A program made the position numbers and the translations under genes. From NCBI RefSeq assembly GCF_011764445.1, contig NZ_BLPG01000001.1:8485316-8549315 (forward strand): a DNA stretch of 64,000 nt, in the 5' to 3' direction. Source of the stretch: Phytohabitans rumicis (GTDB lineage: Bacteria; Actinomycetota; Actinomycetes; Mycobacteriales; Micromonosporaceae). How positions within the stretch are numbered: position 1 is the stretch's first letter; every line of letters starts with the position of its first letter. Below, piece after piece: positions 25,868 through 28,171 of this stretch. A model generated the notes under the pieces. It was not told the DNA's origin, ran no database searches, and was given only the letters and a program-made list of their open reading frames with translations.

Positions 25868-25951
25868 GCGTCGATCAAGGGCAAACGGTCGTGCTTTGAT
25901 CTCCAAACCACGACCGTTCGCCCTTGATCGACGCGAAAGTCCTTGATCGCG
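25868..25951. repeat. Nested palindromic intergenic repeat, copy C (core inverted)
   Basis: Contains TCGATCAAGGGCAAACGGTC on the left and CGACCGTTCGCCCTTGATCG on the right. The central loop reads TTTGATCTCCAAA, the complement of the GGAGATC loop in the other copies, so the core is flipped. The left outer arm is missing or diverged. Confidence 0.85.
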
Positions 25952-26022: not shown

Positions 26023-26039
26023 AGTAGGGCGCCCCTGTT
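26023..26039. repeat. Left arm of palindrome P1, the target of the outer mobile element
   Basis: AGTAGGGCGCCCCTGTT; its exact complement is at 28155-28171. With the inserted DNA removed, the two arms form one hairpin about 80 bp long whose interior carries GGGGCGCCC, the duplicated target. Confidence 0.8.
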
Positions 26040-26148
26040 GGGTGTTCCGCCGTGAGTGGGGCGCCCTCAAGGCCGGGTAGTTAAGGATTCCTGGGCGCGT
26101 CAAGCCGCGCGGCTGATCGCTTGCCCAGCGTTGGAGCCGACGCCAGCT

Positions 26149-26214
26149 TGCGGTGATCATGAAGTTAGCGGCAGGGAGAAGGCTCTCCCGGGCGTCAACT
26201 TCATGATCACCGCA
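26149..26214. repeat. Palindrome P3
   Basis: TGCGGTGATCATGAAGTT (26149-26166) and its exact complement (26197-26214) around a 30-nt loop. It lies inside the 534-bp element. Confidence 0.85.
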
Positions 26215-26298
26215 GGAGTCGGGTCACCGTCCGGGTGATCGGGGACGGCGCGGTCACCTGACCCTGATGGCACCCCCTGTCATGCGACGACGAGGCGG

Positions 26299-26348
26299 GT
26301 AGATCTAGACGAGTTATGGCTGACATCGAGCCCTAACTCGTCTAGATC
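26299..26348. repeat. Palindrome P2, interrupted by the IS
   Basis: Left arm GTAGATCTAGACGAGTTA (26299-26316). The right arm starts at 26334 and is cut after 26348 by the IS; its last three bases TAC are at 27874-27876. The restored right arm is the exact complement of the left. The loop is 17 nt. Confidence 0.85.
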
Positions 26349-27863
26349 CAATGCCGCTCAGTTAAGGCGTGGTGTGGCGTCGTCAAGGGCTCTGGGGCAC
26401 GAGGATGTCGATGCTGATCGTGGCCTGGTAGGTCTTCCGGTCGATGTTGGGGCCTTTGGCGTTGTACTTGGAGATCGCTCGTTTGACGATCCGCGGGGCG
26501 CGCCTGGTCCGACGCTCGGGCATGAGGTTGGCTAGGACTCGCCGGCCGATCGCGCCGACCAGGTCGATCACCGCGCCGGTGATGGCGTTCGCCGCCTGCA
26601 CGACCAGGTCACGCGCCGCGCTCAAGGCGGTAGTGAAGCAGGCCCGGTCGGGGTCAAGGTCGGGCTGGGTGTCGGTGGCGTCGGCCATGGCCAGGCGGAT
26701 GGCCTGGTAGGTCACCAGCAGGGCGTAGACCTCCTGGCGGACCCCGGCCGGGGTCCTGGCTCGTAGTACCCGCCCGCCCAGGATCGTCGATTTCAGTTCC
26801 AGGAACGCTGTTTCGACCTCCCACCGTTCGTGGTAGAGCCGGACCAGGTCGAACGCCGGATAGTGGTGGTGCTCAATCAGCGTGGTGACGAGGCGGTACA
26901 TGGTCGTGGCACGCCCGGCCGTGGTCTGCACGTGGATTTGACACTCCACCACGCGGACCCGCAGTTGGCCGATCACCGATAGGTATGAGCCGTCCGGCAG
27001 CCGCTGTATCACCGGCAGTTTCCGGTTGTCCTTGACCCGCACCACCAGGTATGCCCTGGCCTGCGCGATCGCCTCGATCAGGTCCGCCGCCCCAAAGGCC
27101 CGGTCCAACAGCACGACCATCGACGGACGCAGGCTGGCCACCAACCGTTTGGCGTAGGGCATCTCCCCACCCCGGTGGGCCCGAAGATCGCGTCGATGAC
27201 GGTCCGGGTTCCGCAGCACACCAACACCAGCAGCCGCAGCTTCGGATAGCCCGACCCGCCATGGTTGCAGCGATGCGGGGTGTACTCGGCCAGATTCGCC
27301 GCGCTGGCCGGGACAGCCGCGCTGGTCCCGTCTATAGCGCAGACCAGCAGCCCTCGCCACCACCGCCCACGGGTACGCGGCGCCGGACCCGGTCCCCGCA
27401 CCAGGTCGAACAAGGCCCGCAAAGGAGCCGGTCCCATGCGTTGGCGGGCCTGGGCCAGCACACCCGAGGTCGGGTTCGCCACCGGCACACCGTCCAGGGC
27501 CGCTACCAGCTTGTCCCAGACCTGCCGGTAGCCCACCTCGGCGAACAACGCGCCGGCTAACAGCAGGTAGACCACAACCCGGGCTGGTACCTCACGCACA
27601 CGGGACTTACCCAGACCGGCCTCCGCCAACGCGGCATCGACCATCTCGAACGGCACATGCTGCGTCAACTCCCCAACGTGCCCTGGGGCGAACACACCCG
27701 CAGCGACCTTGATCATCCGGCGGGTGACAAAATACGTGGACAGCGAGGCTCCCTACAGATCATGACCGTCTTGTGAGGACAGCCATGTCTACCGGAGCCT
27801 CGCTGCCCGTCTACCCCGGCCCCATCAACAACGCCCGGCCAGACCCTTAACTGAGCGGCATTG
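26349..27863. mobile_element. IS4-family insertion sequence, 1,515 bp, with 10-bp target duplication
   Basis: The terminal inverted repeats CAATGCCGCTCAGTTAAGG (26349-26367) and exact complement (27845-27863) are 19 bp and perfect. The flanking direct repeat CGTCTAGATC is identical at 26339-26348 and 27864-27873. The single transposase gene is on the minus strand. The length, duplication size and YREK motif are typical of the IS4 family. Perfect ends and duplication indicate a recent insertion. Confidence 0.93.
26383..27716 (-). pseudogene. IS4-family transposase, one-base frameshift
   Basis: The N-terminal IS4 domain (from MIKVAAGVFAPGHVGELTQH) includes the first catalytic Asp in CAIDGTSAAV. 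The second Asp is in VVLLDRAFGAAD and the catalytic Glu lies in YHERWEVETAFLELK, which fits the IS4 signature Y-x2-R-x3-E-x6-K. The frames switch at about 27175, where FGPTG should continue into GEMPYAKRL. One added base gives a 444-residue protein. Either the copy is inactive or the base was lost in sequencing, as elsewhere in this window. Confidence 0.88.
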
Positions 27864-28154
27864 CGTCTAGATCTACTGCCAGCTTCGACTTGGCCAGGGG
27901 TGGGCCGGGCCCGCACCCGGATGTATCCGACACAACCGGCCGCTGGATCTGGGTCCGCCGACCGGGCCGGTGATGTGTTCGACGGCGGGGCCGACCTACG
28001 CCGCGACTGTGGCGAACAGTTGCCCCTGGGCGGGCAATTTCTCGACACAGTCGCCAAAGTCGAGGGCGATGGCCGCGTCACATCAGCGCTCGACATGGAC
28101 CTGATTCCCTTAACTACCCGGCCTTGGGGGCGCCCCCATACCCGCTATGTCGTG

Positions 28155-28171
28155 AACAGGGGCGCCCTACT
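28155..28171. repeat. Right arm of palindrome P1
   Basis: AACAGGGGCGCCCTACT, the exact complement of 26023-26039. The space from here to 28279 holds only the 3' flank of the protease gene. Confidence 0.8.

What the first reader, a model, noticed from the sequence alone, without database searches (positions are those of the whole stretch)
26023..28171. Three-layer nesting: IS4-family IS inside an older IS4-like element inside a palindrome
The inner IS (26349-27863) has perfect 19-bp ends and a perfect 10-bp duplication. It lies in a 534-bp element with its own perfect 19-bp ends (26068-26086 and 28108-28126), 15 of 19 bases shared with the inner ends, and a 10-bp duplication GGGGCGCCC[TC] with one difference. 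Removing everything restores palindrome P1 with 17-bp exact arms. The outer element has no transposase and could be a MITE-like family moved by a relative of the inner IS. The mismatch in the older duplication against the perfect newer one fits the order of events.
Basis: partly seen in the sequence, partly recalled or inferred. Interest (0 to 1): 0.75.

Follow-up and report, generated by a model that had tools for sequence, protein, structure and literature searches.

The report
Nested transposons landing in dispersed palindromes
A recently spread jumping gene sits inside an older, gene-less jumping element, which itself sits in a short palindrome repeated around the same bacterial chromosome; each layer appears to carry the preferred landing site of the next one.

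Summary
The inner element (26349-27863) is an IS4-family insertion sequence: 8 copies in this genome, 5 identical, all at CTAG-centred 10-bp targets. The window copy has a one-base deletion; intact copies exist. The outer 534-bp element belongs to a transposase-less (MITE-like) family: 21 end-paired elements (196-658 bp, window counted without its IS) at 19 sites, flanked by RGGGCGCCCY-type 10-mers. By a fixed rule 16 of these 19 sites lie in a dispersed palindrome (P1) not found in 199 other family genomes; among free RGGGCGCCCY sites in the first 3 Mb it is 16 of 49. The joined window flanks with one target copy match an empty P1 without a gap. The likely driver differs from the one implied: the exact 19-bp outer ends occur on 1.8-kb IS4-family elements of Planomonospora and Streptomyces, in a transposase clade apart from the inner IS, with GG..CC-framed flanks. 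No such driver was found in the host, and clean direct duplications are not shown for those two. The outer elements carry other palindromes that act as landing pads for IS4-type and, in one copy, IS630-like elements. New variant of known kinds.

The parts
26023..26057 (.). left part of palindrome P1 (one full GGGCGCCC core at 26026-26035; the next core, 32 bp on, is the one interrupted by the outer element)
   Evidence: (I6)
26058..26067 (.). outer target duplication, left copy GGGGCGCCCT
26068..28126 (.). outer non-autonomous (MITE-like) element, 534 bp without the inner IS and one copy of its duplication
26068..26086 (+). outer 19-bp end CAAGGCCGGGTAGTTAAGG
28108..28126 (-). outer 19-bp end, inverted copy
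26149..26214 (.). internal palindrome P2 (GCGGTGATCATGAAGTT type), also found outside the paired elements
26302..26348 (.). internal palindrome P3 (GTAGATCTAGACGAGTTA type), landing site of the inner IS; its right end resumes after 27873
26339..26348 (.). inner target duplication, left copy CGTCTAGATC
26349..27863 (-). inner IS4-family insertion sequence, 1515 bp here (1516 in intact copies); perfect 19-bp ends 26349-26367 and 27845-27863
26383..27716 (-). transposase gene, split by a one-base deletion into two overlapping ORFs (26383-27363 with DDE_Tnp_1; 27078-27716 with Nterm_IS4)
27864..27873 (.). inner target duplication, right copy CGTCTAGATC
28003..28054 (.). internal palindrome P4 (GACTGTGGCGA..TCGACACAGTC type)
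28127..28136 (.). outer target duplication, right copy GGGGCGCCCC
28137..28171 (.). right part of palindrome P1 (core at 28159-28168)
   Evidence: (I6)

Best explanation
Three successive insertions with different target preferences. (1) P1, a palindrome of roughly 80-130 bp with two to four GGGNNCCC-type cores about 32-35 bp apart, is dispersed in this genome. (2) A transposase-less element with IS4-type ends inserted in a P1 core, duplicating about 10 bp (RGGGCGCCCY). It belongs to a family of at least 21 such elements that must have been moved in trans. The best candidate mover, at about 60%, is the IS4-family lineage with the same 19-bp ends that occurs as elements of about 1.8 kb in Planomonospora, Streptomyces and Saccharothrix; it was not found in this genome. 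(3) The outer elements carry further palindromes, and one of these (P3) holds TCTAGA. A 1516-bp IS4-family IS that inserts at CTAG-centred 10-bp targets, and has multiplied recently, inserted there. Steps shown: nesting, family membership, targets, empty sites, clade of the matching ends. Steps inferred: past trans-mobilisation, loss or absence of the driver, and growth of large elements by insertion beside an existing copy followed by movement as a unit.
For: Repeats. 59 end matches vs 0 control. 21 paired elements and their targets. P1 arm at 16 of 19 element sites vs 16 of 49 free RGGGCGCCCY sites among all 57 positions that one search listed (Fisher one-sided p 0.00014). Empty P1 loci. Window junction with one core aligns ungapped over 84 bp (88%, 107 bits) to L080; zero or two cores need 10-bp gaps (72 and 90 bits); one core best at 10 of 19 sites. 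Inner IS Nterm_IS4 + DDE_Tnp_1; 8 copies, 5 identical, CTAG at 8 of 8. Restricted to this genome: 1 of 300; 1 of 200. Exact ends on both sides of 1787-bp IS4-type elements L171 and L169; clade of four 99/99. Of 23 flanks at exact ends elsewhere, first base a purine in 23, last base C in 21. Internal core followed by the first 8 bases of the end in 3 of 7 elements with an internal core.
Against: The window's outer duplication is imperfect, and so are the flanks at 15 of 19 sites (window included). In the empty-site test 1 site favours two cores (L016), 1 favours none (L034), 1 is a tie between one and none (L071) and 6 gave no spanning alignment. Three sites fail the P1 rule (L016, L034, L079; L016 has a second core nearby). 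The free sites without P1 arm look largely coding, so avoidance of genes may explain part of the P1 bias. The autonomous candidates show no clean direct duplication: L171 flanks are perfect inverted copies and 8 of 10 direct; L165 9 of 10 inverted; L169 7 of 10 direct. The 23 flanks have no composition control and some come from the same genome. G236 has an IS with nearly the same ends (17 or 18 of 19) that targets CTAG, so ends alone do not fix target choice. No driver was found in the host; present-day mobility is not shown.
Confidence: 0.82

Rival explanations
1. The inner IS (or its CTAG-targeting relatives) itself moved the outer element in trans; the outer ends are a diverged version of its own.
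For: 15 of 19 end bases shared; same 10-bp duplication length; the 456-aa frames among the host's Nterm_IS4 loci are all inner-IS copies (6 of 9 loci); G236 shows that ends close to the outer type can go with a CTAG target.
Against: None of the 19 outer-element sites has CTAG in its flanking 10-mers; inner-IS sites are CTAG-centred in 8 of 8; transposases with exact outer ends form another clade.
Confidence: 0.12
2. GGGGCGCCCY is part of a 29-bp terminal repeat of the outer element, not a target duplication; the elements entered P1 by homology.
For: The 10-mer is nearly invariant and nearly palindromic and abuts the ends at most sites; flanks of L171 and L165 are inverted copies; L034 favours zero cores.
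Against: Empty P1 loci contain one core where the junction predicts it (best score at 10 of 19 sites, among them the window, L029, L042, L043, L065); L034 has the off-consensus AGCACGCCC on both outer sides; L162 in Microtetraspora glauca has a perfect 10-bp direct duplication GGGCTTGATT next to the same kind of ends.
Confidence: 0.07
3. The outer element is a decayed autonomous IS that lost its transposase at each site, not a family moved in trans.
For: Such elements arise from ISs; L162 is a 1285-bp pair with only a C-terminal piece of transposase.
Against: 21 paired elements of many sizes share ends and modules, none long enough for an IS4 transposase, at 19 separate target sites; this is more easily explained by movement after loss of the gene.
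Confidence: 0.05

Closest known systems
IS4 family, subgroup IS4 (De Palmenaer et al. 2008, PMC2266710; outline, abstract and passages incl. Table 1 seen)
   Same: Inner IS: 1516 bp (subgroup 1400-1650), ends with AATR at positions 2-5 and WTW at 14-16, 10-bp duplication (10-13), Y(2)R(3)E(6)K motif. The paper notes strong target-arm specificity for some subgroup members.
   Different: Outer ends have G instead of T at position 4; transposases with the exact outer ends have R instead of K in the YREK motif, and those of L171 and L169 are 550 and 547 aa.
MIC231 and other IS-ended cassettes, bacterial MITEs (MIC231: listings and reference lists only, otherwise recalled; PMC2229807 passages)
   Same: Transposase-less units with IS ends, thought to be moved in trans.
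   Different: MIC231 carries passenger genes (recalled); these carry palindromes and vary in module content.
IS elements that target REP palindromes, e.g. ISRm22, ISRm19, ISPsy8, ISPpu9/10 (PMC1525189; abstract and outline seen)
   Same: Transposons with strong preference for a dispersed extragenic palindrome.
   Different: Here two different palindromes serve two layers, and one layer brings in the target of the next.
TIMEs, mosaic non-autonomous transposons of the Tn3 family (PMC4133298; abstract opening and passages seen)
   Same: Non-autonomous miniature elements that build larger composite units.
   Different: Tn3-type there, IS4-type ends here; movement was captured with trap plasmids there, not shown here.

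Membership tests
IS4 family, subgroup IS4 (inner IS) | Nterm_IS4 and DDE_Tnp_1 transposase | tested here: met
IS4 family, subgroup IS4 (inner IS) | Y(2)R(3)E(6)K motif | tested here: met
   YHERWEVETAFLELK in intact copy L051; definition
IS4 family, subgroup IS4 (inner IS) | ends -AATR--------WTW----, 1400-1650 bp, 10-13 bp duplication | tested here: met
   CAATGCCGCTCAGTTAAGG, 1516 bp, 10 bp; table
MITE / non-autonomous IS4 derivative (outer element) | terminal inverted repeats shared with an autonomous element | tested here: met
   exact 19-bp ends on IS4-type elements L171, L169; no such element found in the host
MITE / non-autonomous IS4 derivative (outer element) | no transposase gene, multiple dispersed copies | tested here: met
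   21 paired elements, 196-658 bp; too short for an IS4 transposase; their small ORFs were not scanned
MITE / non-autonomous IS4 derivative (outer element) | target-site duplication | tested here: met
   with the imperfections stated there (perfect 10 bp at 1 of 19 sites, perfect 8-9 bp at 3)
MITE / non-autonomous IS4 derivative (outer element) | demonstrated movement in trans | not testable with these tools
   needs an assay or strain comparison
Outer ends as subgroup IS4 ends | -AATR at positions 2-5 | tested here: not met
   CAAGG: G at position 4; positions 14-16 fit
REP / REPIN (P1, P2, P3) | 20-40 bp REP units tied to a REP-associated tyrosine transposase | not tested
   no search for such a transposase was made; P1-P4 are longer palindromes
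IS4-type lineage of L171/L169 as driver | same ends and same target frame (GG..CC) | tested here: inconclusive
   ends identical; target frame agrees; direct duplications unclear in L171, L165, L169

The most novel reading that the evidence does not exclude
A layered 'landing-pad' system: miniature elements that insert at a palindromic core duplicate their own target, so further copies insert beside them and the group then moves as one unit. In doing so they collect other dispersed palindromes, which become the preferred sites of unrelated transposons (IS4-type and IS630-type, both at CTAG). Nested insertions would then be the expected outcome of target choice, not accident.
Probability: 0.35. 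Interest if true: 0.62.

Novelty: new variant of a known kind. Interest (0 to 1): 0.48.

Why it matters
It is a worked example in which the target preference of each mobile element can be read from the layer below, with empty sites, many separate insertions and autonomous relatives. It ties a family of gene-less elements in one genome to a driver lineage that was not found in that genome, and it suggests that palindrome-targeting elements can build their own nests. Within the IS4 family it also shows relatives with similar ends but different target cores (CTAG, TGATCA, CTATAG, GTGTCA, possibly GG..CC), a natural set for studying how a DDE transposase chooses its target.

Tried and rejected
Ordinary conserved intergenic DNA: rejected. 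Rfam: 10 matches in 5 loci, all microRNA families and all below their gathering scores, taken as chance matches of long hairpins. An autonomous driver in the host: apart from elements that hold an inner IS, the only facing pair of outer-type ends around a transposase within 3.5 kb in the fetched loci is 7214594-7217401 (L073). Its ends are CAAGGCCCTGTAGTTAAGG, its flanks end in CTAGATC, and it holds an IS3-type insertion, so it is not taken as the driver. Target choice inferred from ends alone: rejected because of G236. First control for P1 bias: 20 RGGGCGCCCY sites not fetched before gave 0 of 20 with a P1 arm. This sample was biased, since P1 sites had been fetched earlier because they matched P1, so I replaced it with a count of all 57 positions that the capped list shows, which raised the baseline to 16 of 49 free sites. 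Avoidance of genes was not separated from targeting. Papers: in the titles and abstract openings listed by searches I saw none describing this family or P1; most subscription journals are not in the library. Plasmid collection: one record, 4% of the query; related transposases are common there (598 records). No call named the organism; actinomycete is inferred from G+C (72% in the window) and from the named hosts of the ends.

Full report
What is there. The window lies in contig C1 of a three-contig 10.7-Mb genome. The repeats named in the finding are present. From outside in: palindrome P1 (17-bp perfect arms), a 10-bp pair GGGGCGCCC(T/C), 19-bp inverted ends CAAGGCCGGGTAGTTAAGG, a 534-bp body, and inside it a 1515-bp element with perfect 19-bp ends CAATGCCGCTCAGTTAAGG and a perfect 10-bp duplication CGTCTAGATC.

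The inner IS. Its two ORFs match Nterm_IS4 and DDE_Tnp_1. The genome holds 8 copies (a further hit, 7216096, is a 70% relative and two are short). Five copies are identical (L049-L053), one differs by one substitution (L054), the window copy by a one-base deletion that splits the gene, and L055 by 20 one-base deletions. Nterm_IS4 occurs at 9 loci in the genome, 6 of them with a 456-aa open frame. All 8 sites have CTAG in the duplicated 10-mer. By eye from the flanks, five are in P3-type palindromes (window, L050, L051, L053, L054), one is in another palindrome seen in the outer family (L049), and two are elsewhere (L052, L055). Length, ends, duplication and YREK motif fit subgroup IS4 of De Palmenaer et al. 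(PMC2266710; outline and passages seen; motif).

The outer element is a family. DNA searches with its two halves found many partial and near full-length relatives. The 19-bp end with up to 3 mismatches occurs 59 times, control 0. Pairing ends (up to 4 mismatches) in the fetched loci gave 21 elements including the window, 196-658 bp with the window counted as 534, at 19 sites. Two sites hold two elements in tandem with one shared 10-mer between them (L034, L069). I dropped unpaired ends, pairs made of one outer and one inner end, the L072 pair (no matching flanks), the L073 pair, and outer elements with an inner IS whose second end was not recognised (L050, L054). In pieces of at least 150 bp the window element aligns with nine relatives at 67-95%, some pieces inverted; with the short relatives it shares only ends and modules. 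The modules include palindromes P2, P3 and P4. Outside the paired elements, in the fetched own-genome loci, P2 has 25 matches and P3 has 5, some of them next to unpaired ends or an inner IS, so not all are free-standing. P3-like stems also occur in congeners G003, G004 and G005, which lack the target-plus-end pattern. I read this as palindromes that exist apart from the outer elements.

Target P1. P1 arms occur 160 times with up to 3 mismatches against 13 in the reversed control. A 53-bp double-core form gives 20 matches at 18 places in this genome and none in 199 other genomes of the family, 5 of them congeners. Many copies have further cores about 32 bp outside. By a fixed rule (5 of 6 bases of GTGAGT next to the core on either side), 16 of 19 element sites are P1 sites, 17 if a second core nearby is also accepted. 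The difference, 16 of 19 against 16 of 49, has p 0.00014. Some of the 49 lie in or beside outer-type elements (for example 2268151 and 2540424). The free sites without arm that I looked at look largely coding, so avoidance of genes may contribute.

Insertion, not shared ancestry. With one core copy kept, the joined window flanks align with a P1 copy that has no outer end near it (L080) over 84 bp, 88%, without a gap; with none or two, a 10-bp gap appears and the score falls from 107 to 72 and 90 bits. Over 19 sites, one core scores best at 10, two at 1 (L016), none at 1 (L034), one and none tie at 1 (L071), and 6 gave no spanning alignment.

Who moves it. Target plus end occur in this genome only, of 300 family genomes (41 matches, control 0). 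The exact 19-mer occurs in 21 stretches of named records, all actinomycetes (the tool may leave out the own genome). L171 (Planomonospora sp. ID82291) and L169 (Streptomyces spiralis) are 1787-bp elements with the exact end on both sides and 550- and 547-aa Nterm_IS4/DDE_Tnp_1 proteins. In a tree of 33 transposases (midpoint root, for drawing only), four from elements with at least one exact end (L165, L168, L169, L171) form one clade (99/99). The G236 IS, with ends CAAGGCCGGGTAGTTAGG(C/G) and a CTAG target, is its sister, and the inner IS falls in another group of 21 (100/99). Of the 23 flanks at exact ends, 23 start with a purine, 21 end in C, and 14 have GG..CC (no composition control; some flanks come from one genome). 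This agrees with RGGGCGCCCY. Against it: L171 and L165 show inverted rather than direct flanks, and L169 only 7 of 10 direct. The one perfect direct 10-bp pair with such ends is L162, GGGCTTGATT. I take this lineage as the most likely driver, at about 60%, and its absence from the host as loss or incomplete sampling.

Related IS4 elements. A protein search (E up to 1e-40, at most 5 candidates scored per genome) found relatives in 42 of 250 family genomes, the own one included. Of 30 loci returned, 25 gave an end pair; 13 have a perfect and 3 an imperfect CTAG-type 10-bp duplication. The other 9 do not, among them CATGATCATG (G067), CGCTATAGCG (G025) and GTGTCAGAAC (G074) with perfect duplications, and L177 without one (further copies). 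Target cores thus differ between relatives.

Deeper nesting. In L050 an ORF with a DDE_3 domain (IS630-like) lies, as far as I can read the junctions by eye, at CTAG in the left duplication of an inner-IS copy, itself in P3 of an outer element whose left end abuts a P1-type core: four layers. A similar DDE_3 ORF lies just outside the L073 element and would explain its imperfect flanks. Seven of the 21 elements contain an internal RGGGCGCCCY; in three it is followed by the first 8 bases of the 19-bp end, in four by a version with 4 of 8 matching. With the tandem sites L034 and L069 this suggests growth by insertion next to an existing copy, then movement as one unit; L034, with AGCACGCCC on both outer sides, would be such a moved pair. 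This is inference.

Place among known kinds. IS4-family ISs, IS-ended cassettes and MITEs, and ISs that target extragenic palindromes are known (PMC1525189, abstract, names ISRm22, which PMC2266710 puts in subgroup IS4Sa; PMC2229807 and PMC4133298, passages). The similarity to the IS231A target GGG(N)5CCC is recalled, not tested. What is unusual is the chain of targets: each layer supplies the next one's landing site.

Noticed in passing
L050 1-3300 (G000:C1:8040035-8043334): Four-layer nest: IS630-like element at CTAG in an inner-IS duplication, in P3 of an outer element, beside a P1-type core.
   Followed up: partly
L055 (G000:C1:2939686-2941181): An inner-IS copy with 20 one-base deletions and no other differences, which looks like uncorrected long-read error; the window copy's one-base deletion may be of the same kind.
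   Followed up: partly
window 25868-25936; L050 1-50: Another roughly 67-bp palindrome (GCGTCGATCAAGGGCAAACGG..), with similar sequence next to the L050 nest; possibly one more dispersed family.
   Followed up: no
window, whole: CTAG occurs 26 times against about 163 expected from base composition, so the CTAG-bearing palindromes are rare landing sites.
   Followed up: partly
L128, L136, L134: P1 copies have GGGNNCCC or GGGGNCCCC cores at about 32-35 bp spacing, close to three helical turns, in mirrored order; a protein-binding array is possible.
   Followed up: no
L211 and L212 (G067): IS4-family copies with CATGATCATG duplications have nearly the same flanks at two places, so here too the IS may sit in copies of a dispersed palindrome.
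   Followed up: no
L165, L171: IS4 elements with exact outer ends flanked by inverted (GAGGTTCCCC/GGTGAACCTC, GGGGTTCCCC/GGGGAACCCC) rather than direct 10-mers.
   Followed up: partly
L175 4890-5132 (Streptomyces monashensis): A 243-bp pair of outer-type ends, possibly a similar miniature element in another genus.
   Followed up: no
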